DNA of 21,324 nucleotides from Clostridia bacterium. GTDB lineage: Bacteria; Bacillota; Clostridia; Christensenellales; Aristaeellaceae. The position numbers and the translations under genes are program-made. The stretch is from assembly GCA_900754755.1 (NCBI GenBank), contig CAAEEC010000288.1, positions 1 to 21,324 on the forward strand. The letters are read 5' to 3'. Positions 2,804-16,565 of the stretch are shown one piece after another. The notes below the pieces were generated by a model. That model saw nothing but the letters and a program-made list of their open reading frames with translations, had not been told where the DNA came from and did not search any database. Positions within the stretch are counted from its first letter, which is position 1, and every line of letters starts with the position of its first letter.

Positions 2804-2807
2804 GAGG
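2802..2807 (+). promoter_or_regulatory. Ribosome binding site overlapping the phosphatase stop codon
   Basis: A full AGGAGG lies 8 bases before ATG 2816 and shares bases with the TAG stop of the phosphatase gene. It fixes the start of the second hydrogenase and is one of the strongest Shine-Dalgarno sequences in the window. Confidence 0.8.
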
Positions 2808-2815
2808 TTCGCGCC

Positions 2816-4234: not shown

Positions 4235-4276
4235 GATCCATCCCCACAGTATTTCAACAGCAAAGGAGATAAAACC

Positions 4277-5224
4277 ATGAGCAGGAAAGTTACCATTATT
4301 GGCGCGGGCAGCGTTGGCAGCACCATCGCGTACACCATGGCCGTGAACGGCCTGGCGGGCGAAGTGGTTATGATCGATATCAACACCAGCAAGGCGCTGG
4401 GCGAGGCCATGGACATCCGCCAGGGCACGCCGTTCTGCGCGCCGATCCAGATCTACGCCGGCACCTATGCCGACGCGGAAGGCTCCGACGTGGTGATCGT
4501 CACCTCCGGCGTGGCGCGCAAGCCCGGCCAGACGCGCATCGACCTGGCGCAGACCAACGTGAACATCATCAAGAGCCTTACGCCGGAAATCGTGAAGTAC
4601 GCGCCCAACGCCATTTACGTCTTTGTGGCGAACCCCGTGGACATCCTGACCTATGTGTTCAACAAGATTTCCGGCATTCCGGAAAACCGCATCATCGGTT
4701 CCGGCACCATCCTGGACACCGCGCGCCTGCGCTCCCGCCTGGCCGAGTATATGTCCATCAGCCAGAAGAACGTGCACGCCTACGTGCTCGGCGAGCACGG
4801 CGACAGCTCGTTTGTGCCGTGGAGCTGCGCGCAGATCGCCAGCGTGAAGCTGGAAGATTACCGCAAGGGCCTCAACTACCGCGACCATGTGTATCCCGAA
4901 TTCAGCTACGATGAAATCGAGCAGTATATGCGCACCTCGGGCGCGAAGATCATCGGCCGCAAGGGCGCCACGTTCTACGCCATCGCCATTTCCGTGTGCC
5001 ACATCGTGGAAGTGCTCTTCGGCAGCACGAATACGGTGATGACCGTCTCCTCCATGATGCATGGCGAATACGGCCTGGACGACGTGTGCCTGTCCATCCC
5101 CTTCATCGTGGGGCCGGAAGGCATCTGCGGCAACATTCTCCCGCCGCTCACCGATGAAGAACTGGTGAAGATGCGCCACTCTGGCGACGTGCTCAAGGGC
5201 GTTATCGCGCAGCTGGACATTTAA
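4277..5224 (+). CDS. mdh: LDH-fold NAD-dependent dehydrogenase, predicted malate dehydrogenase
   Basis: A 315-residue member of the LDH/MDH superfamily. The NAD motif is GAGSVGST (9-16), and an aspartate after beta-2 (MIDIN) favours NAD over NADP. Catalytic residues are present: D147 and R150 (LDH 168/171) and H174 in GEHGDS (LDH His195). By homology most pipelines would call it L-lactate dehydrogenase. However, the substrate-specificity loop reads GVARKPGQTR, placing Arg81 where LDH has Gln102. Arg at this site selects oxaloacetate/malate, and E. coli Mdh has the same VARKPG. T232 (GATFY, near LDH Thr246) is still LDH-like, so some pyruvate activity is possible. Fumarase starts 15 bases downstream, supporting the malate assignment. 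AAGGAG at 4263-4268 precedes the ATG. The 42-base gap before it shows no terminator or clear promoter. Confidence 0.82.
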   Translation: MSRKVTIIGAGSVGSTIAYTMAVNGLAGEVVMIDINTSKALGEAMDIRQGTPFCAPIQIYAGTYADAEGSDVVIVTSGVARKPGQTRIDLAQTNVNIIKSLTPEIVKYAPNAIYVFVANPVDILTYVFNKISGIPENRIIGSGTILDTARLRSRLAEYMSISQKNVHAYVLGEHGDSSFVPWSCAQIASVKLEDYRKGLNYRDHVYPEFSYDEIEQYMRTSGAKIIGRKGATFYAIAISVCHIVEVLFGSTNTVMTVSSMMHGEYGLDDVCLSIPFIVGPEGICGNILPPLTDEELVKMRHSGDVLKGVIAQLDI

Positions 5225-5239
5225 GGAGCGAAACAGGCA

Positions 5240-6604
5240 ATGGAATACAGAATTGAACGCGACTCCATGGGCGAAATGCAGGTGCCCGCGGACAAATACT
5301 GGGGCGCACAGACGCAGCGCAGCAAGCAGAACTTCCAGATCGGCGGCGAAATCATGCCGCGCGAAATCACGCACGCCTTCGGCATCCTCAAAAAGGCCGC
5401 CGCCATGGCGAACTACAAGCTGGGCAAGCTGGATGAGCGCCGCCGCGACCTGATCCTGCAGGCGTGCGACGAGGTGATTTCCGGCCAACTGAACGACCAC
5501 TTCCCGCTGGTGGTGTGGCAAACGGGCAGCGGCACGCAGTCCAACATGAACGCCAACGAGGTCATCGCCAACCGCGGCAACGCCATCGCGGGCGAGCGGC
5601 TTCTGCACCCCAACGACCATGTGAACATGTCGCAGTCCTCCAACGATACCTTCCCCACCGCCATGCACATCGCGGCGGTGCTGGGCATCGAGGATCAGCT
5701 GATCCCGGAAATGGATCGCCTGATTGCAACCTTCAAGCGCCTGGAAGCGGAAAACGAGGGCGTGGTGAAGAGCGGCCGCACGCATTTGCAGGACGCGACG
5801 CCCATCGCCTTCTCGCAGGAAATCAGCGGCTGGCGCAACATGATTGAAAAGACCCGCGCCCAGCTCAAGCTGGCGCTCTCCGGCCTGCACGAGCTGGCCC
5901 TGGGCGGCACCGCCGTGGGCACCGGACTGAACGCGCCCAAGGAGTTCGGCAAGGAAGTGGCCGCCGCCTGCTCGGAACTGACGGGCAAGCCCTTCGTCAC
6001 CGCGGAAAACAAGTTCCACGCGCTCACCAGCAAGGACGATCTGGTATTCGCGCACGGCGCGCTCAAGGCCCTGGCCGCGAACCTGATGAAAATCGCCAAC
6101 GACGTCCGCTGGCTGGCCAGCGGCCCGCGCGACGGCCTGGGCGAGATCTTCATCCCGGAAAACGAGCCGGGCAGTTCCATCATGCCGGGCAAGGTCAACC
6201 CCACGCAGTGCGAAGCCATGACGATGGTGGCCGTGCAGGTCATCGCCAACGACGTGGCCGTGGGCTTCGCCGCCTCGCAGGGCAATTTCGAACTGAACGT
6301 GTTCATGCCCGTGTGCATCTACAACTTCCTGCAGTCGGTGCGCCTGCTGGCGGACGGCATCCGCTCCTTCAACAACAATTGCGTGTCCGGCATCAAGGCC
6401 AACCGCGAGAAGATGGCGCACAACCTGCACAACTCGCTCATGCTCGTGACCGCGCTCAACCCCTATATCGGCTACCACAACGCGGCCAAAACGGCCAAGA
6501 AGGCCTATAAGGAAAACATCTCGCTGAAGGAAGCGTGCGTGCAGCTGGGCTTCCTCACGGCGGAAAAATTCGATTCGGTGTTCCATCCCGAGCAGATGGT
6601 GTAA
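5240..6604 (+). CDS. fumC: Class II fumarate hydratase
   Basis: A 454-residue homotetramer-type, iron-free fumarase that interconverts malate and fumarate in the cytoplasm. The family signature [16 protein letters not shown] is intact at residues 311-326 and includes the catalytic serine. Other conserved blocks are [31 protein letters not shown] and the [11 protein letters not shown] histidine region. Length matches bacterial FumC. The Shine-Dalgarno AAGGAG (5223-5228) overlaps the mdh stop codon, so the two genes are co-transcribed. With mdh upstream and a fumarate reductase pair downstream, the reaction is expected to run towards fumarate. Aspartase shares the fold, but the first residues ([16 protein letters not shown]) and overall sequence fit fumarase. 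Confidence 0.95.
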
Positions 6605-6620
6605 GGGGGAAATCGCAAGC

Positions 6621-7412
6621 ATGGTTTACAGTTATTTCCCGGGCTGCACGCTCAAAACCAAGGCCAAGGACCTGGACGCGTACGCCCGCCGGTCGGCCGA
6701 GGCGCTGGGCGTGACGCTCGAAGAGCTGCCCGAGTGGCAGTGCTGCGGCGCGGTGTATCCCATCGCGCAGGATGAAATCGCCACGCGGCTTTCGTCGGTG
6801 CGCGCGCTCAACAGCGCGAAGGAACTGGGGCGCCCGCTCCTCACGCTGTGCTCCGCATGCCACCACGTGATCAAGCGCGTGAACGAGGACATGCGCGCAA
6901 ACGAAGACATCCGCGGCAAGGCCAACCGCTATCTGGAGCTTGCCGAGCCCTACGCGGGCGAAACCCGCGTGGTGCATTATCTGGAAATGCTGCGCGACGA
7001 CGTGGGGTTTGTCGAGCTGAAAAAGAAGGTCGTAAACCCGCTCAAGGGCCGCAAAATCGCCGCCTATTACGGCTGCCTGCTGCTGCGCCCCAACGACGTG
7101 ATGCAGTTCGACAACCCGGAAAATCCCACGATTCTGGAAGACTTTATCCGCGCCATCGGCGCGGAACCGGTGGTTTCCGCGCTGCGCAACGAGTGCTGCG
7201 GCGCGTATGTGGCACTGGAAGACAAATCCGTGCCCGAAAAGCTCGCCGGCCGCATCCTGGATTCCATGCGGGATCTGGGCGCGGACAGCGTGATCACCGC
7301 GTGCCCGCTGTGCCGGTACAACCTGTACACCAACCGCAAGGAAGGCCATCCGCCGGTGTACTATTTCACCGAGCTGCTGGCGGAAGCGCTCGGCGTGAAG
7401 GAGGCGAATTGA
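6621..7412 (+). CDS. hdrB: Heterodisulfide reductase subunit B-like protein (two CCG domains)
   Basis: A 263-residue protein with two complete CCG cysteine-rich domains, the ligand sets that bind non-cubane [4Fe-4S] clusters in methanogen HdrB. Set 1 is C9, C41-C42 and C77/C80. Set 2 is C152, C192-C193 and C228/C231. No membrane segment is seen. In HdrABC, HdrB receives electrons from HdrC and reduces the high-potential acceptor, a disulfide in methanogens. Here no heterodisulfide chemistry or DsrC is visible, and the operon ends with fumarate reductase genes, so the acceptor may be the FrdAB-like pair or an unknown disulfide. The RBS AAGGGGGA lies at 6603-6610, 16 bases after fumC. hdrC begins 2 bases after the stop. 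Confidence 0.93.
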   Translation: MVYSYFPGCTLKTKAKDLDAYARRSAEALGVTLEELPEWQCCGAVYPIAQDEIATRLSSVRALNSAKELGRPLLTLCSACHHVIKRVNEDMRANEDIRGKANRYLELAEPYAGETRVVHYLEMLRDDVGFVELKKKVVNPLKGRKIAAYYGCLLLRPNDVMQFDNPENPTILEDFIRAIGAEPVVSALRNECCGAYVALEDKSVPEKLAGRILDSMRDLGADSVITACPLCRYNLYTNRKEGHPPVYYFTELLAEALGVKEAN

Positions 7413-7414
7413 GC

Positions 7415-7807
7415 ATGGCCGTGAATCCGATGGAGCTGCGCGACACGGTTTTGCGCATCACGGGCGTGAACCCGCGCAAGTGCATGAAATGCGGCAAGTG
7501 CTCCGGTACCTGCCCCGCGTATGACCAGATGGAGTATCATCCGCACCAGTTTGTGGCTATGGTGGAAAAGGGCGATATCGAGCGGCTGATGGCCTCGCCC
7601 AGCGTGTTCATGTGCCTGAGCTGCTTCGCCTGCGTGGAGCGTTGCCCGCGCGGCGTGGAGCCCGCCAAGCTGATTGAGGGCATCCGCCTGGCGATGATCC
7701 GCCAGAAGGACGCCAACCACATGACCATGAATGATATTCCCGCGCTTTTGGACAGCGAAATGCCGCAGCAGGCCATTACCAGCGCCCTGCGCAAATACGC
7801 GAAATGA
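7415..7807 (+). CDS. hdrC: Heterodisulfide reductase subunit C-like ferredoxin
   Basis: A 130-residue two-cluster ferredoxin. Motif 1 is CMKCGKCSGTCP (C23-C33) and motif 2 is CLSCFACVERCP near residues 65-76. It is the expected electron wire between HdrA and HdrB. It is shorter than methanogen HdrC (about 180 residues) and stops about 50 residues after the second cluster; the stop codon is clean, so this looks like a short family member rather than a break. The frame is open far upstream inside hdrB, but ATG 7415 is the sensible start: AAGGAGG at 7398-7404 is about 10 bases before it and homologous sequence begins there. TTG 7409 is an alternative. It lies directly between hdrB and hdrA. Confidence 0.9.
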   Translation: MAVNPMELRDTVLRITGVNPRKCMKCGKCSGTCPAYDQMEYHPHQFVAMVEKGDIERLMASPSVFMCLSCFACVERCPRGVEPAKLIEGIRLAMIRQKDANHMTMNDIPALLDSEMPQQAITSALRKYAK

Positions 7808-7819
7808 CTTAGGCCATGG

Positions 7820-7846
7820 GCGCGCGGGCGGCGGATTGCCGCGCGC
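7820..7846. other. GC-rich inverted repeat in the hdrC-hdrA gap
   Basis: Perfect 8-base arms GCGCGCGG (7820-7827) and CCGCGCGC (7839-7846) flank an 11-base loop in the largest gap of the hdr-flx-frd set (74 bases). No T-run follows, so it is not an intrinsic terminator. An RNA hairpin affecting processing, stability or relative expression is possible, but short GC palindromes arise easily at this base composition. Confidence 0.3.
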
Positions 7847-7863
7847 GACGCCATTGCCATAAC

Positions 7864-7870
7864 GAGGGAG
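7864..7870 (+). promoter_or_regulatory. Ribosome binding site deciding the hdrA start
   Basis: GAGGGAG lies 11 bases before TTG 7882 and only 2 bases before GTG 7873. The spacing favours the TTG start, which also gives the usual HdrA N-terminus (KIGVFVCWCG). An ATG at 7816 would add 22 residues with no resemblance to HdrA. Confidence 0.45.
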
Positions 7871-7881
7871 AAGTGAGTTCA

Positions 7882-9870
7882 TTGCAGAAAATCGGCGTTT
7901 TTGTCTGTTGGTGCGGCAGCAATATCGCGGCCACCGTGGACGTCAAGGCTGTGGCGGAAGCGGCCAGCCATGAGCCGGGCGTCGTATTCGCGACAGACTA
8001 TCAGTATATGTGCTCCGAAGGCGGCCAGGCGCGCATCCGCGAGGCCATTCGCGAATACGGCCTCACGGGCATCGTGATCTGCTCCTGCTCGCCGCGCATG
8101 CACGAGGCGACCTTCCGCAAGACGGCGCAGGCCGCGGGCCTGAACCCGTACATGGTGGAAATCGCCAACATCCGCGAGCAGTGCTCGTGGATCCACAGGG
8201 ATATGGCGGAGGGCACCGAAAAGGCGATCATCCTCGCCAAGGCCGCCATCGCCAAATTGCATCTCAACACGCCGCTCAAGGCCGGGGAGAGCCCGGTCGT
8301 CAAGCGCGCGCTGGTCATCGGCGGCGGCATCGCGGGCATTCAGACCGCGCTGGACATTGCCGACGCGGGCTACGAGGTGGACATCGTGGAAAAGACGCCC
8401 ACCATCGGCGGCAAAATGGCGCAGCTGGATAAGACGTTCCCCACGCTGGACTGCGCGGCCTGTATCCTCACCCCCAAAATGGTGGAAGCGGCGCAGAACG
8501 AAAAGATCCACCTGTACACCTGGAGCGAAGTGCAGTCTGTGAAGGGCTTTGTGGGCAATTTCACCGTGGAAATCCGCAAAAAGGCGCGCTATGTGGACGA
8601 GACCAAGTGCACCGGCTGCGGCCTGTGCATGGAAAAGTGCCCCTCGCGCAAGACCAAGAGCGAGTTCAACCTGGGCCTTTCCAACCGCACGGCCATCTAT
8701 ATCCCCTTTGCGCAGGCCATCCCGAACGTGCCGGTGATCGACACCGAGGCCTGCCTCAAATTCAAAACCGGCAAGTGCGGCATCTGCCAGAAGAACTGCG
8801 CCGCGGGCGCGATCGACTATGAGCAGAAGGACGAGATCATCACCCAGCAGTACGGCGCCATCGTGGCGGCCACGGGCTTCAACCCCATCTCGCTGGAGCG
8901 CTACGACGAATTCGCCTACAGCCAATCGCCGGACGTGATCACCAGCCTGGAACTGGAGCGCCTGATGAACGCGGCCGGCCCCACCAAGGGCGTGCTGCTG
9001 CGCCCCAGCGACCACGAGCACCCCAAGACGATCGTGTTCGTGCAGTGCGTGGGTTCGCGCGATACCACGGATTGCGGCAAACCCTACTGCTCCAAGATCT
9101 GCTGCATGTACACCGCCAAGCACGCGATGATGATCCGCGAAAAGTATCCGGATACAGACGTACACGTGTTCTATATCGACGTGCGCACCCCGGGCAAGAA
9201 CTTCGACGAGTTCTACCGCCGCGCGGTGGAGCAATACGGCGTGGATTATATCAAGGGCATGGTCGGCAAGGTCGTGCCGCACGACGGCAAGCTGCTGGTG
9301 CAGGGCAGCGATTTGATCGGCGGCGAGCAGATCAAGATCGACGCGGACCTGGTGGTGCTGGCCGCGGCCATCGAGCCGGATAAATCCGCCCGCCCGCTGG
9401 CCACGATGCTCACCGCCAGCATGGATACCAACGATTTCTTCACCGAGGCGCACCCGAAACTGCGCCCCGTGGAAAGCCCCACGGCCGGCGTGTTCCTCTC
9501 CGGCGTGTGCCAGGGCCCCAAGGACATTCCCGAAACCGTGGCCCAGGCGGGCGCGGCGGCGTCCAAGGTCATCGGCCTGTTGGCCAAGGACAAGCTGGTG
9601 GGCAATCCCTGCGTGGCGCATTCCAATGAATTGCTGTGCAACGGCTGCTCCACCTGCGAGAACGTCTGCCCGTATGGCGCGATCGAGTATATCGATAAGG
9701 AAATCAACGACCACGGCCGGCGCGAAGTGCGGCGCATCGCCCTGGTGAACGAGGCCGTGTGCCAGGGCTGCGGCGCGTGTACCGTGGCCTGCCCGTCCGG
9801 CGCAATGGATCTGAAGGGCTTCAGCAACCAGCAAATCATGGCGGAGGTAGACGCGATATGCAAGCCGTAA
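7882..9870 (+). CDS. hdrA: HdrA-like FAD/iron-sulfur electron-bifurcating subunit
   Basis: About 662 residues, typical for HdrA. The N-terminal domain starts KIGVFVCWCGSN. The FAD-binding Rossmann motif is VIGGGIAGIQ (GGG from residue 147). An inserted ferredoxin motif CTGCGLCMEKCP lies at C243-C253, followed by further cysteines in CGICQKNC. The C-terminus has two more ferredoxin sites: CNGCSTCENVCP (C586-C596) and CQGCGACTVACP (C627-C637). In methanogen HdrABC-MvhAGD the HdrA flavin splits electron pairs between ferredoxin and HdrB. The donor here would be FlxABCD through the MvhD-like protein encoded next. The start is probably TTG 7882 (GTG 7873 and ATG 7816 also in frame). The gene overlaps flxD by 13 bases. 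Whether this copy truly bifurcates cannot be read from motifs alone. Confidence 0.92.
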   Translation: MQKIGVFVCWCGSNIAATVDVKAVAEAASHEPGVVFATDYQYMCSEGGQARIREAIREYGLTGIVICSCSPRMHEATFRKTAQAAGLNPYMVEIANIREQCSWIHRDMAEGTEKAIILAKAAIAKLHLNTPLKAGESPVVKRALVIGGGIAGIQTALDIADAGYEVDIVEKTPTIGGKMAQLDKTFPTLDCAACILTPKMVEAAQNEKIHLYTWSEVQSVKGFVGNFTVEIRKKARYVDETKCTGCGLCMEKCPSRKTKSEFNLGLSNRTAIYIPFAQAIPNVPVIDTEACLKFKTGKCGICQKNCAAGAIDYEQKDEIITQQYGAIVAATGFNPISLERYDEFAYSQSPDVITSLELERLMNAAGPTKGVLLRPSDHEHPKTIVFVQCVGSRDTTDCGKPYCSKICCMYTAKHAMMIREKYPDTDVHVFYIDVRTPGKNFDEFYRRAVEQYGVDYIKGMVGKVVPHDGKLLVQGSDLIGGEQIKIDADLVVLAAAIEPDKSARPLATMLTASMDTNDFFTEAHPKLRPVESPTAGVFLSGVCQGPKDIPETVAQAGAAASKVIGLLAKDKLVGNPCVAHSNELLCNGCSTCENVCPYGAIEYIDKEINDHGRREVRRIALVNEAVCQGCGACTVACPSGAMDLKGFSNQQIMAEVDAICKP

Positions 9871-10304
9871 CCGAGAAAAAACCCTTCACGCCGCTGATCG
9901 TGGCGTTCTGCTGCAACTGGTGCAGCTACGCGGGCGCGGATCTGGCCGGCACCAGCCGCCTGAGCTACCCCGCAAACGTGAAAATCATCCGCGTGCCGTG
10001 CTCCTGCCGCGTGAATCCGCTGTTCATCCTGCGCGCGTTCCAGCGCGGGGCCGACGGCGTGATCCTGTGCGGTTGCCACCCGGGCGACTGCCACTATTCC
10101 ACCGGCAATTACTACACGCGCCGCCGCATGACCCTCCTGTTCAGCATGCTCGATTACCTGGGCATCGAACGCGAGCGCACCCGGGTGGAGTGGGTGTCCG
10201 CGGCGGAAGGCACCAAGTTCGCGGCTACGATGAACGATTTTGTGCAGACGATTACCGAACTGGGCGAGAATGTGAAGTTGGGGGATCTGAGATGCAAGCA
10301 ATAG
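9858..10304 (+). CDS. flxD: MvhD/FlxD-like [2Fe-2S] electron-transfer subunit
   Basis: A 148-residue MvhD-family protein. Conserved cysteines are C18/C19/C22 (FCCNWCSYAGAD), C48/C50 (VPCSC), C71/C73 and C78 (LCGCHPGDCHY). In methanogens MvhD links the NiFe hydrogenase to HdrA; in bacteria lacking Mvh the homologue FlxD links the NADH-oxidising Flx proteins to HdrA. No NiFe hydrogenase genes are nearby, so the FlxD role fits. ATG 9858 lies within the last codons of hdrA (13-base overlap) with GGAGGT at 9843-9848 as RBS, indicating coupled translation. It overlaps flxC by 13 bases as well. Confidence 0.9.
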   Translation: MQAVTEKKPFTPLIVAFCCNWCSYAGADLAGTSRLSYPANVKIIRVPCSCRVNPLFILRAFQRGADGVILCGCHPGDCHYSTGNYYTRRRMTLLFSMLDYLGIERERTRVEWVSAAEGTKFAATMNDFVQTITELGENVKLGDLRCKQ

Positions 10305-11275
10305 TGGATCAAATCAAGGCCAAGGCGCAGGATCTGCTTGCCGCCGGCACGGTAGACCGCGTGCTGGGCTGGGAAGCGGGCGAGCTGGCGTACGACCGCA
10401 CCCCGGCCGTATTCGGCCCGGCGGAAGCGCTGGACGGCCTGAAATACGACCTTTTCTGCGCCGCGAACCTTTCGAAATACCTGATCGCGGAAACCAAAAA
10501 AGAAGGAAAAGTGCTCGCGCTGCTCAAGCCGTGCGACACCTACAGCTTCAACCAGTTGCTGCACGAGCACCGCATCCGCCGCGAAGGCGTGTATGTGCTG
10601 GGCATCCCCTGCCGCGGCAAGATCGACGTGCGCAAGCTCACGGCCATGGGCATGGAGGGCATCACCGGCGTGGAAGACGATGGCACAACGCTCACCGTGC
10701 ACACGCTCTATGGCGACCACACCTGCCCGCGCGAAGAAGCGCTGCTCGAGCGCTGCCTGTGCTGCAAGGGCAAGGAACACAAGGCGTTCGACGAAGTGAT
10801 CGCCGATCCCGAGCCCTATACCGAGCCGGATCGCGACCGCTTCTCCATGGTGAGCAAGCTGGAAGCCATGTCCCCGCAGGAGCGCTTCGCGTTCTGGCAG
10901 GGCGAGCTTTCCAAGTGCATCCGCTGCAACGCCTGCCGCAACGTGTGCCCCGCCTGCTCGTGCCTGAACTGCGTGTTCGACAACCCCGCCTCCGGCGTGA
11001 GCGGCAAGGCGAACGTGGACCCGTTTGAGGAGCAGCTGTTCCACATCATCCGCGCGTTCCACGTGGCAGGCCGCTGCACGGATTGCGGCGAGTGCAGCCG
11101 CGTTTGCCCGCAGGGCATCCCGCTGCATTTGCTCAACCGCAAATTTATCCAGGATATCAATCGCTTCTATGGCGAATACCAGGCGGGCGCGGATCCGGAT
11201 GCGCGCGGCCCGCTGACCAGTTACACGACCGGCGACGTGGAGCCGTCCGTCGTTTCCAAGGGAGGGGCGAAATGA
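10292..11275 (+). CDS. flxC: FlxC-like iron-sulfur protein with FrhB-like N-terminal region
   Basis: A 327-residue soluble protein. Residues 1-200 resemble the FrhB/coenzyme F420 hydrogenase beta-subunit type (LLKPCDTYSFNQLL, then VLGIPCRGKID and RCLCCKGKEH). The last third carries two ferredoxin motifs: CIRCNACRNVCP (C209-C219), followed by extra cysteines (CSCLNC), and CTDCGECSRVCP (C262-C272). In FlxABCD-HdrABC sets, FlxB and FlxC are the iron-sulfur proteins that pass electrons from the NADH-oxidising FlxA to FlxD. The label FlxC rather than FlxB is tentative. ATG 10292 overlaps flxD by 13 bases, and the stop overlaps the next start as ATGA. Confidence 0.78.
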   Translation: MQAIVDQIKAKAQDLLAAGTVDRVLGWEAGELAYDRTPAVFGPAEALDGLKYDLFCAANLSKYLIAETKKEGKVLALLKPCDTYSFNQLLHEHRIRREGVYVLGIPCRGKIDVRKLTAMGMEGITGVEDDGTTLTVHTLYGDHTCPREEALLERCLCCKGKEHKAFDEVIADPEPYTEPDRDRFSMVSKLEAMSPQERFAFWQGELSKCIRCNACRNVCPACSCLNCVFDNPASGVSGKANVDPFEEQLFHIIRAFHVAGRCTDCGECSRVCPQGIPLHLLNRKFIQDINRFYGEYQAGADPDARGPLTSYTTGDVEPSVVSKGGAK

Positions 11276-12291
11276 TGTATAAGCTGGCTATGAGCCGCGT
11301 GAGCGATCTGCTCGCCTCCTTCGGCAAAGTCATCGCGCCCATCGAGCGCGCGGAGCAGGTGAATTTCGGCGCCTGGAGCCCGGAGGAAACCCTGCGGCTG
11401 GACGTGCTGAAGACCGTGAACAGCGCCAAGGACGCGTTCTTCCCGCAATCGGAGGACATCGTACACTTCAAAATGGAAGGCAAGAACATCGCCATCGGCA
11501 TGCCGGAAAAGCCGGATGAGCCGTTCGTGCTCTTCGGCGCCCGCGCCTGCGACGTGCGCGCGCTGGACGTGCTGGATCGCGTGTTCCTTTCCGAGCCGGC
11601 CGACCCGGGCTATGCCGCGCGCCGCAAAAACGGCACCATCGTTTCCATCGCCTGCGCGCGCCCGGCGGAAACCTGCTTCTGCCACGCCTATGGCATCGAC
11701 GCGACCGCGCCGCAGGGCGACGTGGCCTGCTGGATCGACGGCGACACACTCTATTGGCAGCCGCAGAGCGAAAAGGGCCAGGCGCTGACGGAAACCGCCA
11801 AACCCTTCCTCGAAGAATGCCCCGATACCGCGGCGGACGCGGCCAAGCAGGCCATTCGCGAAATCCTCGACCGCCTGCCGCTCAAAGACCTCACGCTGGA
11901 CGGCTGGGGCGGCGACGTGCTGATGGAAAAGTTCAATTCCGAAAAGTGGGCGGATCTTTCCCGCGCCTGCCTGGGCTGCGGCGCGTGCACTTTCGTGTGC
12001 CCCACCTGCCAGTGCTACGACATCCGCGATTTCGATACCGGGCACGGCATCCAGCGCTACCGCTGCTGGGACAGCTGCATGTACAAGGACTTCACCATGA
12101 TGGCCAGCGGCACCCCGCGCCCGACGCAGCTCGAGCGCTACCGCCAGCGCTTCATGCACAAGCTGGTGTATTTCCCCGCCAACAACGACGGCATGTTCTC
12201 CTGCGTGGGCTGCGGCCGCTGCGTGGCGAAGTGCCCGGTTTCTTCCCACATCGTCAAGGTCATCAAGGCGCTTGGAGGTGACGCGAAATGA
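11272..12291 (+). CDS. flxB: FlxB-like iron-sulfur protein (AsrA-type)
   Basis: A 339-residue soluble protein resembling the anaerobic sulfite reductase subunit A type. The central block VLFGARACDVRALDVLD is typical of this group. Two ferredoxin motifs follow: CLGCGACTFVCP (C233-C243) with CQC just after, and CVGCGRCVAKCP (C311-C321). No siroheme-binding AsrC gene is present, so sulfite reduction is unlikely and the Flx assignment is preferred. The frame is open well upstream, but ATG 11272 forms an ATGA overlap with flxC, and GGGAGGGG at 11260-11267 is the RBS; ATG 11275 is an equally spaced alternative. The product should shuttle electrons between FlxA and the rest of the complex. Confidence 0.78.
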   Translation: MMYKLAMSRVSDLLASFGKVIAPIERAEQVNFGAWSPEETLRLDVLKTVNSAKDAFFPQSEDIVHFKMEGKNIAIGMPEKPDEPFVLFGARACDVRALDVLDRVFLSEPADPGYAARRKNGTIVSIACARPAETCFCHAYGIDATAPQGDVACWIDGDTLYWQPQSEKGQALTETAKPFLEECPDTAADAAKQAIREILDRLPLKDLTLDGWGGDVLMEKFNSEKWADLSRACLGCGACTFVCPTCQCYDIRDFDTGHGIQRYRCWDSCMYKDFTMMASGTPRPTQLERYRQRFMHKLVYFPANNDGMFSCVGCGRCVAKCPVSSHIVKVIKALGGDAK

Positions 12292-13115
12292 ACCAGAACG
12301 CATTGATTCCCATGCTGGGCGTCGTCACCGATATCCGACGCGACACGCCCGACGTTAAAACCTTCCGCGTGCAGGCCCTGGACGGCGGCAAGTGCTTTGA
12401 GCACATTCCCGGCCAGTGCGCCATGCTTTCCATCCCCGGGGTGGGCGAAGCCATGTTCTCCATCACTTCCTCGCCCACGGTGCGCGAATACCAGGAATTT
12501 TCCATCAAAAAGTGCGGTTGCCTCACCAGCTGGCTGCACCAGATGGACGTGGGCCAGCAGATCACCATCCGCGGCCCCTATGGCAACGGGTTCCCGGTGG
12601 AGGGCGACCTGAAGGGCAAGGATCTCATTTTCATCGCGGGCGGCATCGGCCTGGCGCCGCTGCGCTCGGTGATCAACTACGTGCGCGCCAACCGCGACAA
12701 TTATGGCACGGTGGACGTGGTGTATGGCGCGCGCTCGGCCGAAGACCTGGTGGACATCGACGAAATCCAGAACGAATGGACGAAAACGCCCGGCGTGAAC
12801 GTACACCTGACCATCGACCGCGCGCAGGAAGGCTGGGACGGGCATGTGGCCTTCGTGCCCGCCTTTGTGACGGAGCTGGGCTTCGATCCCAACAAAACGG
12901 TGCTGGTCTGCGGCCCGCCGGTTATGATCAAGTTCACGCTCAAGGCGCTGATGGAGCAGGGCTTTAAGCGCAACAACGTGTATACCACGATGGAACTGCG
13001 CATGAAGTGCGGCGTCGGCAAGTGCGGCCGCTGCAACATCGGCGACAAATACGTCTGCAAGGACGGCCCGGTATTCCGCTTTGACCAGTTGGACGAGCTG
13101 CCCAACGAATATTGA
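12288..13115 (+). CDS. flxA: FlxA-like NAD(P)H-flavin oxidoreductase (AsrB/PyrK/FNR family)
   Basis: A 275-residue ferredoxin-NADP reductase-fold protein. The N-terminal barrel for FAD is followed by the NAD-binding motif GGIGLAPLRS (from residue 118), VCGPPVM near residues 206-212, and a C-terminal [2Fe-2S] site C241/C246/C249/C257 (KCGVGKCGRC...C). This is the layout of AsrB and PyrK. In FlxABCD it is the NADH entry point. It follows flxB with an ATGA overlap and has GGAGGTGA as RBS. As the only pyridine-nucleotide enzyme in the hdr-flx set, it defines NADH (or NADPH) as the probable donor to HdrABC. Confidence 0.88.
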   Translation: MNQNALIPMLGVVTDIRRDTPDVKTFRVQALDGGKCFEHIPGQCAMLSIPGVGEAMFSITSSPTVREYQEFSIKKCGCLTSWLHQMDVGQQITIRGPYGNGFPVEGDLKGKDLIFIAGGIGLAPLRSVINYVRANRDNYGTVDVVYGARSAEDLVDIDEIQNEWTKTPGVNVHLTIDRAQEGWDGHVAFVPAFVTELGFDPNKTVLVCGPPVMIKFTLKALMEQGFKRNNVYTTMELRMKCGVGKCGRCNIGDKYVCKDGPVFRFDQLDELPNEY

Positions 13116-13130
13116 CGGGGGAGAAAAGAC

Positions 13131-13805
13131 ATGAGCGAAATGGTAAACGTATTCCTGTTCGGCAAGAAATACTCTGTGCCGTCAAACCTCACGATTATGC
13201 GCGCCATGGAATATGCCGGCTATCAGCTCGTGCGCGGCTGCGGTTGCCGGAACGGCTTCTGCGGCGCCTGCGCGACGCTATACCGCATCAAGGGCGACCG
13301 GCAGCTGAAAGTGGCGCTCGCCTGCCAGACCAAGGTGGAAAACGACATGTACGTGGCCACCCTGCCATTCTTCCCGCTGGTAAAGGAAGTGTATGACATC
13401 AACAAGGTGCGGCCGGACGAGCAGATCATGATGCAGCTGTACCCGGAAATCTACAACTGCATCGGCTGCAACGCCTGCACCAAGGCTTGCCCGCAGGGCC
13501 TGAACGTGATGCAATATATCGCCTACGCGCAGCGCGGCGAATACGCCAAGTGCGCGGAAGAATCCTTCGATTGCGTGATGTGCGGCATCTGCTCCTCGCG
13601 CTGCCCCGCGCAGATCTCCCATCCGCAGGTCGCGATGCTGGCGCGCCGCCTGAACGGCAAGTACATCGCGCCCGAGGCCAAGCACCTCACCGAGCGCGTG
13701 CGCGAGATCAGCGAGGGCGAGTTCAACCAGCTGCTCGAAGACGTGATGCAAAAGCCGGTCGAAGAGCTGAAAGAGCTGTACAACCACAGGGACATCGAAA
13801 AGTAA
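13131..13805 (+). CDS. Fumarate reductase iron-sulfur subunit (FrdB/TfrB N-terminal-like)
   Basis: A 224-residue protein built like SdhB/FrdB. The N-terminal ferredoxin fold has a [2Fe-2S] set C39, C44, C47 and C65 (plus C37). The helical C-terminal half has CIGCNACTKACP (C110-C120) and CVMCGICSSRCP (C148-C158). Both C-terminal sets have four regularly spaced cysteines, suggesting two [4Fe-4S] clusters rather than the [4Fe-4S] plus [3Fe-4S] of quinone-linked enzymes. It lacks the CCG domains fused to this module in archaeal TfrB; separate CCG domains are supplied here by HdrB. No cytochrome b or membrane anchor gene follows. It starts 15 bases after flxA with GGGGGAGA as RBS, and the flavoprotein gene follows after 12 bases. 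It should wire electrons into the FrdA-like subunit. Confidence 0.85.
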   Translation: MSEMVNVFLFGKKYSVPSNLTIMRAMEYAGYQLVRGCGCRNGFCGACATLYRIKGDRQLKVALACQTKVENDMYVATLPFFPLVKEVYDINKVRPDEQIMMQLYPEIYNCIGCNACTKACPQGLNVMQYIAYAQRGEYAKCAEESFDCVMCGICSSRCPAQISHPQVAMLARRLNGKYIAPEAKHLTERVREISEGEFNQLLEDVMQKPVEELKELYNHRDIEK

Positions 13806-13817
13806 GGGGGCGCAAGC

Positions 13818-15416
13818 ATGTTTACACCGGAAATGCTGGAATCCTTGAAGAAGGTCGAAGCCAACCGCAGCGCAAACATCGCGCTTGAGCCGCGGCGCAT
13901 GACCGCAGAAGAAAAGGACGCGCTCCTGGCGCAGTTCCATCCCGATTATAAGACCGAGAGCTTTGAGGCGCTCAAAGTCGGCCCCAACAAGGGCGATAAA
14001 GTGCCGCACGAACTGGCCGCCCTGTTGCAGGGCAACAGCCGCGTGCTGGGCCTGGATCTGGACCTCAACGCGCCGGATTACGACGTGGACGTGCTCGTGA
14101 TCGGCGGCGGCGGCGCGGGCGCTTCCGCGGCCATCGAGGCCGACGAGGCGGGCGCCAAGGTGATGATCGCCACCAAGCTGCGCCTGGGCGACGCGAACAC
14201 CATGATGGCCGAAGGCGGCATCCAGGCGGCGGACAAGCCCAACGATTCCCCTGCCATCCACTATCTGGACGCGATGGGCGGCGGGCACTATGCCAACGTG
14301 CCGGAGCTTTTGCGCAAGCTGGTGATGGACGCGCCGGGCGCGATCCAGTGGCTGAACCAGCTGGGCGTGGAATTCGATAAGGCGCCCGACGGCACCATGA
14401 TCACCACGCACGGCGGCGGCACTTCGCGCAAGCGCATGCACGCGGCGGCGGACTATTCCGGCGCGGAAATCATGCGCACCCTGCGCGACGAAGTGCTCAA
14501 CCGCGGCATCCCGGTGGTGGACTTCACCGCCGCCATCGAGCTGATTCTGGACGACGAGGGCAAGGCCGCGGGCGCGGTGCTGCTCAACATGGAAACCGGC
14601 GAGCACCTCATCGCGCGCGCCAAGACCGTGATCATCGCCACGGGCGGCGCGGGCCGGCTGCACTACCAGGGCTTCCCCACCTCGAACCACTATGGCGCGA
14701 CGGCGGACGGCCTGATCCTGGGCTACCGCGCGGGCGCGCAGCTGCTCTACGCGGACACCCTGCAGTACCATCCCACCGGCGCGGCCTATCCGGAGCAGAT
14801 CTTCGGCGCGCTGGTCACGGAGAAGGTGCGCTCCATGGGCGCGAAGCTGATCAACAAGGACGGCCAGGCCTTCATGCACCCGCTGGAGACCCGCGACGTG
14901 GCCGCCGCCTCGATCATCCGCGAATGCAAGGAGCGCGGCGAAGGCGTGTCCACCGGCGAGGGCGAGGGCGTGTGGCTCGATACCCCGATGATCGACCAGA
15001 TCCACGGCGAGGGCACGCTGGAAAAGCGCCTGCCGGGCATGCTGCGCATGTATTCGAAGTATGATATCGATATCCGCAAGGTGCCGATCGTCGTGTACCC
15101 CACGCTGCACTACCAGAACGGCGGCCTGAAGATCACGCCCGACGGCATGACGGCCGTATCCGGCCTGTTCGTGGCGGGCGAGGCCGTGGGCGGCATCCAT
15201 GGGCGCAACCGCCTGATGGGCAACTCCCTGCTGGACGTGATCGTGTTCGGCCGCAACGCGGGCCAGCACGCCGCCGCGCACGCCAAGACCGTCAAGCTCG
15301 GCGCGCCCACGCTCCAGCATGTGGAAAAATTCGCCAAGGAACTCGCGGACGCGGGCATCGATACCCACACCGCCTCCCCGCAGTTGCTGCCGGACTATCG
15401 CAACCACAAAAAATAA
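13818..15416 (+). CDS. Fumarate reductase flavoprotein subunit (soluble FrdA-like)
   Basis: A 532-residue FAD protein of the SDH/FRD family. FAD-binding GGGGAG starts at residue 96, after an N-terminal extension of about 90 residues. Residues expected for fumarate reduction are present: H318 (QYHPTG), T334-E335 (VTE), R359 (TRDVAAA), H431 (LHYQNGG) and R465 (HGRNRLMGNS). The position of the covalent-FAD histidine (E. coli His44, SHTVAAEGG) is N127 (ANTMMAEGG), so FAD should be non-covalent. The chain ends about 67 residues after R465, so most of the usual C-terminal helical domain is absent. There is no signal peptide, heme motif or membrane segment, implying a cytoplasmic enzyme. Position after hdr-flx and with fumarase and mdh upstream supports fumarate to succinate. 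Another C4 or enoate substrate is possible. Confidence 0.86.
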   Translation: MFTPEMLESLKKVEANRSANIALEPRRMTAEEKDALLAQFHPDYKTESFEALKVGPNKGDKVPHELAALLQGNSRVLGLDLDLNAPDYDVDVLVIGGGGAGASAAIEADEAGAKVMIATKLRLGDANTMMAEGGIQAADKPNDSPAIHYLDAMGGGHYANVPELLRKLVMDAPGAIQWLNQLGVEFDKAPDGTMITTHGGGTSRKRMHAAADYSGAEIMRTLRDEVLNRGIPVVDFTAAIELILDDEGKAAGAVLLNMETGEHLIARAKTVIIATGGAGRLHYQGFPTSNHYGATADGLILGYRAGAQLLYADTLQYHPTGAAYPEQIFGALVTEKVRSMGAKLINKDGQAFMHPLETRDVAAASIIRECKERGEGVSTGEGEGVWLDTPMIDQIHGEGTLEKRLPGMLRMYSKYDIDIRKVPIVVYPTLHYQNGGLKITPDGMTAVSGLFVAGEAVGGIHGRNRLMGNSLLDVIVFGRNAGQHAAAHAKTVKLGAPTLQHVEKFAKELADAGIDTHTASPQLLPDYRNHKK

Positions 15417-15446: not shown

Positions 15447-16565
15447 ATGAGCGAACTGTTGGCGGTATTCGTTATCGCAACGCTGGGGTACCTGATCGGG
15501 AGAATCACCATTTGCGGCATCGATCTGGGAACCGCCGCCGTGCTGCTGGTGGCGCTGGTGTTTGGCCATTTTGGCATCACCACGCCCCCGCTGGTGCGCG
15601 ATATCGGGCTGGTGTGCTTCGTCACCGCCGTCGGCTTCATTGCCGGGCCCAAATTCTTCCGCAACTTTAAGCAGAACGCCAAATCCTACGTGCTGCTGGG
15701 CTTCATCATCATCCTCGTGGGCGCGCTTTCCTGCGCGGCCATCATCCTGCTCGCCAAACTGCCCACGGCCCTGGGCGTCGGCCTGATGACCGGCGCGCTC
15801 ACCAGCACGCCCGGCTTGGCGGCCGCCATTGAAGCTTCGGGCAACGACCCGATGGCTTCCATCGGCTATGGCATCGCCTATCCCTTTGGCGTGATCAGCG
15901 TGGTGCTGTTCGTGCAATTGATGCCCAAAATCCTGCATGTGGATGTGGCCGCGGAGCGCAAGCGCTTCGAAGCCGCCAACAGTGTCGAGCTCAAGCCCTA
16001 CACCGGCAAGCTGTTCTCGTGCGACTCGGTGGGGCTGTTCCCCTTCAGCATTGCCATCGCCCTGGGCCTTCTGCTCGCGGCCGTGACCATTCCGCTGCCC
16101 GGCGGAGCGGAATTCTCGCTGGGCACCTCGGGCGGCCCGCTGATCGTGGGCCTGATCATCGGCCATTTGGGCCACCTGGGCAGTCTCGACCTTTCCGTGA
16201 ACAAGCGCACGCTGGAATCCTTCCGCGAATTCGGCCTGATGATGTTCCTCATCGGCGCGGGCACGGACGCGGGCAGCGGTTTCGTAGCCACGCTGCAGGA
16301 GCACGGCTTCCTGCTGTTCGTATATGGCGCGATCATCGCCCTGCTGCCCATGCTGGTGGGCTATTTCGTGGCCGCGAAGCTGCTCAAACTGAGCATCTTT
16401 AACTCGCTGGGTTCCATCACCGGCGGCATGACCAGCACGCCCGCGCTCGGCACGCTGATTCGCGTGGCCGGCACGGACGACGTCGCCTCGGCCTACGCTG
16501 CCACCTACCCCATCGCGCTGGTGTGCGTGGTGCTCGCCTCACAATTCCTGGCCATTTTGCTGTAA
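15447..16565 (+). CDS. AspT/AAEX-family carrier, predicted dicarboxylate (succinate) exporter
   Basis: A 372-residue polytopic membrane protein with about 10 hydrophobic segments in two halves. Each half carries the AAEX family motif: TSTPG at 119-123 and TSTPA at 329-333. The family includes the AspT aspartate:alanine exchanger and SucE-type succinate exporters of Corynebacterium. Members are usually about 540 residues with a central cytosolic TrkA-C region; here only a short hydrophilic linker (about residues 165-190) separates the halves, so the regulatory domains are missing. It begins 30 bases after the FrdA-like gene with AGGAGA as RBS and no terminator between, pointing to export of succinate or exchange of C4 acids. 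The substrate is inferred from context. Confidence 0.82.
   Translation: MSELLAVFVIATLGYLIGRITICGIDLGTAAVLLVALVFGHFGITTPPLVRDIGLVCFVTAVGFIAGPKFFRNFKQNAKSYVLLGFIIILVGALSCAAIILLAKLPTALGVGLMTGALTSTPGLAAAIEASGNDPMASIGYGIAYPFGVISVVLFVQLMPKILHVDVAAERKRFEAANSVELKPYTGKLFSCDSVGLFPFSIAIALGLLLAAVTIPLPGGAEFSLGTSGGPLIVGLIIGHLGHLGSLDLSVNKRTLESFREFGLMMFLIGAGTDAGSGFVATLQEHGFLLFVYGAIIALLPMLVGYFVAAKLLKLSIFNSLGSITGGMTSTPALGTLIRVAGTDDVASAYAATYPIALVCVVLASQFLAILL

What the first reader, a model, noticed from the sequence alone, without database searches (positions are those of the whole stretch)
6621..15416. Candidate NADH-driven electron-bifurcating soluble fumarate reductase (HdrABC-FlxABCD-FrdAB-like)
Seen: nine consecutive same-strand genes encode HdrB, HdrC, HdrA, FlxD/MvhD, FlxC-like, FlxB-like, FlxA, an FrdB-like and an FrdA-like protein, mostly overlapping or within 16 bases. 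Known: HdrA-type flavin centres bifurcate electrons, FlxABCD supplies NADH electrons to HdrABC, and fumarate is far more oxidising than NADH. Inference: fumarate takes the heterodisulfide's place as the high-potential acceptor, giving 2 NADH + ferredoxin(ox) + fumarate to 2 NAD+ + ferredoxin(red) + succinate. That would let fumarate reduction conserve energy without quinone or membrane. I know of no characterised enzyme with this composition, but cannot search the literature.
Basis: partly seen in the sequence, partly recalled or inferred. Interest (0 to 1): 0.88.

Follow-up and report, generated by a model that had tools for sequence, protein, structure and literature searches.

The report
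Candidate soluble electron-bifurcating fumarate reductase
A gut bacterium carries a set of genes that probably lets it turn fumarate into succinate in the cytoplasm while saving part of the energy as reduced ferredoxin; the idea was already proposed for a related thermophile, and I found no report of a bench test.

Summary
Nine contiguous + strand genes, hdrB-hdrC-hdrA-flxD-flxC-flxB-flxA-frdB-frdA, lie at 6621-15416, with malate dehydrogenase-like and fumarase genes just upstream and an AspT-type transporter downstream. In 80 fetched loci from named records the order is complete in 55, cut by contig ends but consistent in 25, broken in 0. Among 291 genomes of the class, 39 of 40 with FrdB also have HdrA. 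In those 40, MenD, MqnC and SdhC_b558 reach their cut-offs in none, canonical SdhB/FrdB in 2. Ligand and catalytic residues are intact.

Added here: a distinct HdrB type that accompanies FrdBA, and FrdB + HdrC + HdrB read as a split methanogen TfrB.

The novelty claim fails: the same operon make-up and hypothesis are in print for Pseudoclostridium thermosuccinogenes (PMC7282089, citing a 2019 preprint). Bifurcation is unproven; a plain NADH:fumarate reductase or a thiol-linked pair is not excluded.

The parts
4277..5224 (+). LDH/MDH-family dehydrogenase, read as malate dehydrogenase (Arg in the ARKPG motif where LDHs carry Gln; recalled rule)
   Evidence: NCBIfam over cut-off for LDH models (353 of 339; 340 of 304) and marginally for MDH PRK06223 (284.3 of 283); motif; operon context
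5240..6604 (+). fumC, class II fumarate hydratase
   Evidence: TIGR00979 736 bits of 665
6621..7412 (+). hdrB: two CCG domains, 10 Cys for two noncubane [4Fe-4S] clusters
   Evidence: PF02754 72 bits, two stretches; all 10 Cys kept in 50 of 50 HdrB
7415..7807 (+). hdrC: subunit with two ferredoxin-like [4Fe-4S] sites
   Evidence: Fer4_8/Fer4_17; best NCBIfam TIGR03290 HdrC 63.9 bits, below cut-off 160
7873..9870 (+). hdrA: FAD-binding, proposed bifurcating subunit with ferredoxin-type domains
   Evidence: residues 6-662 of 665 aligned to 5odc_A, E 6.5e-203; Cys sets kept in 46 HdrA
9858..10304 (+). flxD (MvhD-type [2Fe-2S] subunit)
   Evidence: PF02662 189 bits; continues the HdrA2 profile at positions 638-773
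10292..11275 (+). flxC-like iron-sulfur subunit, C-terminal part like F420-dependent formate dehydrogenase beta
   Evidence: Fer4_8; 9t1s_M E 9e-25
11272..12291 (+). flxB-like iron-sulfur subunit (sulfhydrogenase beta / AsrA type)
   Evidence: PF17179 106 bits; 9nez_B E 8e-41
12288..13115 (+). flxA: FAD- and NAD(P)-binding subunit with C-terminal [2Fe-2S]
   Evidence: PF00175, PF00970, PF10418
13131..13805 (+). frdB: one [2Fe-2S] and two [4Fe-4S] sites, no [3Fe-4S] pattern
   Evidence: 12 ligand Cys kept in 53 of 53 FrdB; C39 only 'nearly invariant' (at least 90%) in another set of 37 close homologues; E. coli FrdB has V at the C151 equivalent
13818..15416 (+). frdA: catalytic FAD subunit with an N-terminal extension of about 85 residues and no match to the C-terminal part of complex-II flavoproteins
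   Evidence: catalytic residues aligned to E. coli FrdA and kept in 53 of 53, T334 in 52 of 53; best Foldseek match 1kf6_A
15447..16565 (+). AspT/YidE-type membrane transporter, possible C4-dicarboxylate exporter
   Evidence: PF06826 243.5 bits; within 2.5 kb downstream in 44 of 68 loci with room to judge

Best explanation
A cytoplasmic, quinone-free, NADH-dependent fumarate reductase that bifurcates electrons. FlxA oxidises NADH; electrons pass through FlxB/FlxC and FlxD to the HdrA flavin. There each pair is split: one electron goes to ferredoxin through the ferredoxin-type domains of HdrA, the other goes through HdrC and HdrB into FrdB and on to the FrdA flavin, where fumarate becomes succinate. 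Net: 2 NADH + ferredoxin(ox) + fumarate -> 2 NAD+ + ferredoxin(red) + succinate. FrdB, HdrC and HdrB act as a split version of TfrB, so HdrB meets FrdB. MDH and FumC feed it fumarate from oxaloacetate; the transporter may export succinate; Rnf (RnfC found in the near-identical genome G001) or a hydrogenase re-oxidises ferredoxin. Shown here: the genes, their order, co-occurrence, intact ligand and catalytic residues, and no MenD, MqnC or SdhC_b558 hits over cut-off in 40 carrier genomes. Inferred: complex formation, electron path, bifurcation, stoichiometry and export.
For: Order in 80 loci from named records: 55 complete, 25 cut by contig ends but consistent, 0 departures. Co-occurrence in 291 class genomes: both 39, FrdB only 1 (a 75% complete genome), HdrA only 6, neither 245; same contig and strand, 3.9-5.4 kb apart, in 34 of 39, on different contigs in the other 5. 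Of the 6 HdrA-only genomes, one is 62% complete, one hit is 47% identical and four are partial hits at 38-44%. Beyond that order, frdBA also stands beside hdr-flx as frdBA-hdrBCA-flxDCBA in 5 loci and hdrCBA-flxDCBA-frdBA in 1. In 7 genomes where frdBA stands alone, an hdrBCA-flx operon elsewhere carries HdrB and HdrA that group with the window's type (30 rows, SH-aLRT 99 in both trees). All 27 phylum genomes with a listed HdrB at least 44% identical carry FrdB, against 12 of the other 371 (compared by eye, threshold set after seeing the list). One methanogen TfrB profile is matched by window FrdB at 19-94, HdrC at 134-220 and HdrB at 265-486, and HdrB's best NCBIfam match of all (144 bits, cut-off 500) is SdhE, the CCG subunit of 8-methylmenaquinol:fumarate reductase. 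Residues. Over cut-off in the 40 FrdB genomes: MenD 0, MqnC 0, SdhC_b558 0, canonical dhsB 2. Energetics: -18 to -49 kJ/mol for ferredoxin at -420 to -500 mV and NADH at -280 to -320 mV (potentials recalled).
Against: No biochemistry of this complex was seen in what I could read. HdrB keeps both noncubane clusters, so thiol/disulfide chemistry is not excluded. Some distant relatives have frdBA with only hdrCB next to it (4 loci), with a general Hdr-Flx elsewhere only (5 of 15 stand-alone loci) or with no HdrA hit (3 of 15), so the dimer can probably use other donors. RnfC is over cut-off in only 20 of 40 FrdB genomes, so the use of ferredoxin differs between species. NCBIfam equivalog cut-offs are not met. 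The FrdB structure model was too poor to use (pLDDT 49), and no interface was modelled.
Confidence: 0.7

Rival explanations
1. A non-bifurcating soluble NADH:fumarate reductase: Flx and Hdr subunits only relay electrons from NADH to FrdAB, as in the soluble enzyme described for Hydrogenobacter thermophilus.
For: [quoted passage not shown] title seen only in a reference list; its five-subunit make-up is recalled). Four distant loci have hdrCB-frdBA without hdrA beside them.
Against: A full HdrA with the ferredoxin-type cysteine sets and the FAD region is kept and travels with FrdB in 39 of 40 class genomes; a plain relay would not need it.
Confidence: 0.14
2. Two separate enzymes from one operon: Flx-Hdr reduces ferredoxin plus a disulfide (small thiol or DsrC-like protein), and FrdAB is fed by that thiol or by another donor.
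For: HdrB keeps both noncubane clusters. In Desulfovibrio vulgaris, FlxABCD-HdrABC interacts directly with DsrC (title in the reference list of PMC10920352). frdBA occurs without hdr in some relatives.
Against: FrdB has no CCG domain of its own for thiol oxidation. FrdBA-associated HdrB differs from general HdrB at four positions, three of them within three residues of cluster ligands (T10, V83, Y196; 38 against 11 rows), and occurs with FrdB. The nine genes leave no room for a small thiol protein between them, apart from 65 bases before hdrA.
Confidence: 0.12
3. FrdA is not a fumarate reductase but an aspartate-oxidase-like or other unsaturated-acid reductase.
For: FAD is probably non-covalent (Asn127 at the position of the FAD-linking His, 53 of 53), as in L-aspartate oxidase (recalled); the NadB model also matches, 263 bits below a cut-off of 453.
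Against: mdh-like and fumC genes lie upstream, both present in 42 of 55 full loci. The fumarate-site residues are kept. Foldseek's first hit is E. coli quinol:fumarate reductase. The P. thermosuccinogenes operon of like make-up is assigned to succinate formation.
Confidence: 0.03

Closest known systems
'Succinate operon' of Pseudoclostridium thermosuccinogenes (PMC7282089, passages; preprint Koendjbiharie and van Kranenburg 2019, title only)
   Same: Same make-up and order as far as the locus-tag list tells: fumarase, seven-gene Flx-Hdr, two-gene fumarate reductase, possible succinate transporter; the same coupling to ferredoxin proposed; the operon is reported about 4-fold higher under CO2 limitation, not significant for all subunits.
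   Different: Thermophile; the text does not list malate dehydrogenase in the operon. Its proteins were not compared here.
FlxABCD-HdrABC of Desulfovibrio vulgaris (Ramos 2015, title only; cited in PMC10920352)
   Same: Same NADH-to-Hdr module.
   Different: Proposed second acceptor is DsrC (passage); no FrdAB in the operon (recalled). Not compared by sequence; the window's HdrB groups apart from general hdrCBA-flx operons of the phylum.
Thiol:fumarate reductase TfrAB of methanogens (Heim 1998, title only)
   Same: TfrA is FrdA's best NCBIfam match (344 bits); the TfrB profile holds FrdB-, HdrC- and HdrB-like parts in one chain.
   Different: Uses CoM/CoB thiols and has no Flx or HdrA (recalled); in the window the three parts are separate genes; TfrA cut-off 718 not met.
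8-methylmenaquinol:fumarate reductase (SdhABE/Mfr type)
   Same: Pairs a complex-II-like dimer with an HdrB-like CCG subunit: SdhE is HdrB's best NCBIfam match, 144 bits.
   Different: Cut-off 500 not met; quinol-linked and, as recalled, membrane-attached; no Flx or HdrA.
tfrAB interspersed with flxABCD-hdrABC in tubeworm symbionts and Thioflavicoccus mobilis (PMC6315080, PMC11636981, passages)
   Same: Hdr-Flx proposed to feed a fumarate reductase directly.
   Different: Part of a reductive TCA cluster with korABCD in Gammaproteobacteria; not compared by sequence here.
Soluble NADH-dependent fumarate reductase of Hydrogenobacter thermophilus (Miura 2008; title in a reference list)
   Same: Soluble and NADH-linked, by its title.
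   Different: From an rTCA-cycle autotroph; no bifurcation claimed (recalled); the original is not held and was not compared.

Membership tests
FlxABCD-HdrABC NADH dehydrogenase/heterodisulfide reductase | Contiguous genes for HdrA, HdrB, HdrC, MvhD-type FlxD and FlxA-C | tested here: met
FlxABCD-HdrABC NADH dehydrogenase/heterodisulfide reductase | HdrA with FAD region and Fe-S cysteine sets | tested here: met
   aligned 6-662 to 5odc_A; in 46 HdrA the ferredoxin-type sets 246-309 and 589-640 are complete except C592 (43 of 46); C392, C406, C410, C411 in 46 of 46
FlxABCD-HdrABC NADH dehydrogenase/heterodisulfide reductase | NADH oxidation with ferredoxin reduction (bifurcation) | not testable with these tools
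   needs enzyme assay
Complex-II-type quinol:fumarate reductase | FrdA catalytic residues | tested here: met
   H318, E335, R359, H431, R465 kept in 53 of 53, T334 in 52 of 53; their roles in E. coli FrdA are recalled
Complex-II-type quinol:fumarate reductase | Covalent FAD histidine | tested here: not met
   Asn127 at that position, 53 of 53
Complex-II-type quinol:fumarate reductase | [3Fe-4S] cluster in FrdB and membrane anchor | tested here: not met
   four Cys in each 4Fe site; SdhC_b558 over cut-off in 0 of 40 genomes, one weak hit in G106; no anchor gene beside frdBA in the window. Other anchor families (Sdh_cyt, Frd_C) were not searched
Thiol:fumarate reductase (TfrAB) | TfrB chain with FrdB-like and HdrB-like parts fused | tested here: not met
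   parts lie on three separate genes
Thiol:fumarate reductase (TfrAB) | NCBIfam TfrA equivalog score | tested here: not met
   343.9 bits against 718
P. thermosuccinogenes-type Flx-Hdr-linked fumarate reductase | Operon fumarase - seven Flx-Hdr genes - two Frd genes - transporter | tested here: met
   window order against the published locus-tag list; order of the genes inside the published Flx-Hdr block was not seen
P. thermosuccinogenes-type Flx-Hdr-linked fumarate reductase | Sequence relatedness of FrdAB and HdrB to that operon | not tested
   the named genome was not fetched

The most novel reading that the evidence does not exclude
FrdBA plus a dedicated HdrB/HdrC pair is a split thiol:fumarate reductase in which the two noncubane clusters of HdrB serve as an electron wire into FrdB instead of reducing a disulfide. 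Docked on HdrA-Flx, it gives gut Clostridia a membrane-free and quinone-free fumarate respiration that banks energy as reduced ferredoxin. The same FrdBA dimer is plugged into other donors in more distant members of the phylum.
Probability: 0.45. Interest if true: 0.75.

Novelty: new member of a known kind. Interest (0 to 1): 0.5.

Why it matters
If the activity is real, succinate formation in many gut Clostridia is an energy-saving step, not just an electron sink. The family is common: 40 of 291 sampled genomes of the class encode it. It would add fumarate to the acceptors of flavin-based bifurcation and change ATP budgets of succinate-forming fermenters; a recent study of the gut acetogen Blautia luti (PMC12773636, passages read) calculated ATP with a plain NADH-dependent fumarate reductase (whether B. 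luti has this FrdAB type was not checked here). It also gives a clear question about what a noncubane-cluster HdrB does when no disulfide is needed. The general idea is already in print, which limits surprise.

Tried and rejected
AlphaFold model of FrdB from 37 close homologues: mean pLDDT 49, not used. FrdA model: pLDDT 73.8, used for a fold check and the N-terminal extension. Interface modelling of HdrB/FrdB: not done, the structure tool takes one chain. Solved structures of an Hdr-Flx-Frd particle: none among the sequence matches of FrdB, FrdA, HdrA, FlxB, FlxC or HdrB (the lists for FrdB and FrdA were cut at 60 of 83 and 60 of 64); HdrC, FlxD and FlxA were not searched. A search for further HdrB-FrdB fusions was not run; the TfrB profile match was used. 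The idea that hdr-flx linkage might be an accident of close relatives was tested at phylum level. Literature: ten searches. The phrases 'electron-bifurcating fumarate reductase' and 'bifurcating fumarate reductase' gave 0 papers; two searches gave only PMC7282089, that and PMC10920352. So I found no report of measured bifurcation, within a library that lacks most subscription journals and preprints; of the papers listed I read passages of nine.

Rows dropped or not fetched: of the 40 loci fetched are phylum-level and 12 class-level (G270 among the 12); 10 of the 38 non-G001 phylum hits were not fetched with wide flanks (G377, G412, G419, G491, G538, G559, G578, G625, G645, G663). The FrdA+FrdB tree used 53 rows: those 40 loci, 12 of the 80 named loci and the window. 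The HdrB tree used 50 rows and the HdrA tree 46; of the wide loci L173 (no hdrB), L176, L181, L202 and L203 were left out, and only 9 of the 80 named loci were used. In the residue comparison L160 was left out of the FrdBA-associated set because its row grouped with general HdrB; its closer HdrB copy (46%, G564:C3:79083-79868) lies just outside the stretch I fetched. One search lists only its best matches, and its 44% threshold was chosen after seeing the list.

Full report
What is there. The window (21,324 bases, 63% G+C) carries a run of + strand genes: mdh-like 4277-5224, fumC 5240-6604, hdrB, hdrC, hdrA, flxD, flxC, flxB, flxA, frdB, frdA (6621-15416) and an AspT/YidE-type transporter at 15447-16565. 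From hdrB to frdA, neighbours overlap by 4-13 bases or are 2-15 bases apart, except 65 bases before the GTG start of hdrA. Pfam and NCBIfam support each name at family level, though no equivalog cut-off is met for HdrA, HdrB, HdrC, TfrA or TfrB. The window's own assembly is not held. The nearest genome, G001, has an identical FrdA, and the named record with 100% FrdA identity is a MAG of 'Candidatus Alectryocaccomicrobium excrementavium' (DVJN01000188, L034).

Parts in detail. FrdA keeps the fumarate-site residues: by alignment to E. coli FrdA, H318, T334, E335, R359, H431 and R465 stand where I recall H232, T244, E245, R287, H355 and R390. They are kept in 53 of 53 family members (T334 in 52 of 53). 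Asn127 replaces the FAD-linking histidine in 53 of 53, so FAD is probably bound non-covalently. FrdA starts with about 85 extra residues, modelled with three helices at fair confidence, and its match to E. coli FrdA stops near residue 421 of 602, so the C-terminal part has no match. FrdB has four cysteines for a [2Fe-2S] cluster and two complete sets of four for [4Fe-4S] clusters, all in 53 of 53; in a second set of 37 close homologues C39 is only nearly invariant. E. coli FrdB has valine at one of the positions, which I recall is why its third cluster is [3Fe-4S]. HdrB keeps ten cysteines for two noncubane clusters in 50 of 50. HdrA aligns over residues 6-662 of 665 with the HdrA of solved methanogen complexes (E 6.5e-203), and its cysteine sets are nearly invariant in 46 HdrA.

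Conservation in named relatives. In 55 all nine genes stand in the same order and strand; in 25 the contig or locus begins inside the operon and all genes from there on are present in order (6 of the 25 begin inside frdB and say little); none departs. Of the 55, 42 have both mdh and fumC upstream, 8 fumC only, 1 mdh only, 4 neither. The transporter follows within 2.5 kb in 44 of 68 loci with room to judge.

Co-occurrence. In 291 genomes of the class, FrdB (E <= 1e-20) is found in 40 and HdrA (E <= 1e-60) in 45: both 39, FrdB only 1, HdrA only 6, neither 245 (Fisher p 8e-41, without correction for kinship). The FrdB-only genome is 75% complete. Of the HdrA-only genomes, one is 62% complete, one hit is 47% identical and four are partial hits at 38-44%. 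HdrA and FrdB share contig and strand within 5.5 kb in 34 of 39; in the other 5 they are on different contigs. In this class Hdr-Flx of this type appears dedicated to FrdBA.

No quinone route found. In the 40 FrdB genomes, matches over the curated cut-off number 0 of 40 for MenD, 0 of 40 for MqnC, 0 of 40 for SdhC_b558 and 2 of 40 for the canonical SdhB/FrdB family (G106, G261). Among the 14 control genomes of each call, 7, 2, 3 and 9 are over the cut-off. Weak matches below cut-off occur in 30, 34, 1 and 40 of the 40 (in one search many lie at the operon's own loci). Other quinone genes and other anchor families were not searched. RnfC is over cut-off in 20 of 40, including G001. So half of the carriers, G014 at 100% completeness among them, probably re-oxidise ferredoxin in another way.

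Farther relatives. In 398 genomes of the phylum, FrdB (E <= 1e-10) is found in 39, one of them G001. I fetched wide flanks for 28 of the other 38, and for 12 class genomes including the divergent G270. Arrangements in the 28 plus G270: frdBA-hdrBCA-flxDCBA in 5 (one is G270); hdrCBA-flxDCBA-frdBA in 1; hdrCB-frdBA alone in 4; hdrCBA with further HdrA-like genes and flxD before frdBA in 4; no hdr-flx operon in the stretch held in 15 (up to about 20 kb; a few, such as L143 and L167, are cut by contig ends on one side). L149 and L168 among the 15 have a gene that weakly matches hdrC. In the FrdA+FrdB tree the types fall into few groups (6 changes for 6 labels, the least possible being 5). Of the 15, 7 genomes encode hdrBCA-flxDCBA elsewhere with no frdBA beside it (one cut by its contig end before flxA), 5 show only general hdrCBA-flx operons, and 3 have no HdrA hit at E <= 1e-60.

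A distinct HdrB. In the HdrB tree (50 rows) and the HdrA tree (46 rows), the window type, the frdBA-hdrBCA type and the 7 separate operons form one side of a branch (30 rows, SH-aLRT 99 in each), apart from general hdrCBA-flx operons. The HdrB of the hdrCB-frdBA loci and of L153, L155, L156 and L157 fall outside that group too, and the row for L160 groups with general HdrB; its closer copy lies just outside my stretch. All 27 phylum genomes with a listed HdrB at least 44% identical to the window's also carry FrdB, against 12 of the other 371 (compared by eye, threshold chosen afterwards). Four positions separate 38 FrdBA-associated HdrB (L160 left out) from 11 general ones: T10 (38 of 38 against 0 of 11), V83 (37 of 38 against 0), H119 (38 of 38 against 1) and Y196 (37 of 38 against 0); T10, V83 and Y196 lie within three residues of cluster ligands. 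A single methanogen TfrB profile is matched by window FrdB at 19-94, by HdrC at 134-220 and by HdrB at 265-486, and HdrB's best NCBIfam match is SdhE, the CCG subunit of 8-methylmenaquinol:fumarate reductase (144 bits, cut-off 500). FrdB + HdrC + HdrB thus look like a split TfrB, which argues that HdrB and HdrC meet FrdB.

Mechanism. The reaction is exergonic by 18 to 49 kJ/mol over plausible potentials (potentials recalled). I put 0.7 on the whole statement. The weak steps are bifurcation itself and whether HdrB passes electrons directly or by a thiol.

What is known. The operon make-up and the hypothesis are in print. PMC7282089 (passages read) describes in P. [quoted passage not shown] PMC6315080 and PMC11636981 (passages) propose a similar link of Hdr-Flx to thiol:fumarate reductase in tubeworm symbionts. 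I found no measured bifurcating fumarate reductase (searches in Tried and rejected) and no solved structure of such a complex among the matches listed. This is therefore a new member of a proposed, unproven kind. What this report adds is the breadth of conservation, near-complete co-occurrence in the class, the missing quinone-gene hits, the distinct HdrB and the split-TfrB reading. I did not search for earlier reports of the last two.

Noticed in passing
window 37-4234: Directly upstream: a [FeFe]-hydrogenase-like protein with a PAS-type C-terminal part, a SpoIIE-like phosphatase, and a monomeric group B1 [FeFe] hydrogenase (578 bits, cut-off 450). They could sense or dispose of the ferredoxin electrons that the operon would make.
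   Followed up: partly
window 4277-5224: This dehydrogenase scores best as L-lactate dehydrogenase but carries Arg in the motif position that I recall as specific for malate; automatic annotation may misname it.
   Followed up: partly
genomes G536, G559, G369, G323, G645 (best HdrA hits): The best HdrA hit in each has one in-frame TGA, which suggests selenocysteine in HdrA; the position and a SECIS element were not checked, and a few other hits (G625, G515) carry one TAA instead, which warns against reading too much into it.
   Followed up: no
L068 (CALXOI010000040.1): A contig labelled 'uncultured Treponema sp.' carries the clostridial operon with FrdA 80% identical: misbinning or gene transfer.
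   Followed up: no
L149, L162, L167, L168, L169: These distant frdBA pairs share an unidentified neighbour family (c16), and L162 also has genes that look like NapC/NrfH-type cytochromes, which hints at other electron donors (identified by eye only).
   Followed up: partly
window 2495-6622, minus strand: A 1375-residue open frame antisense to the operon, evidently a by-product of 63% G+C coding DNA.
   Followed up: no
window 15447-16565: The AspT-type transporter is short (372 residues) with two permease-repeat matches only; I recall that a family member in Corynebacterium exports succinate.
   Followed up: no
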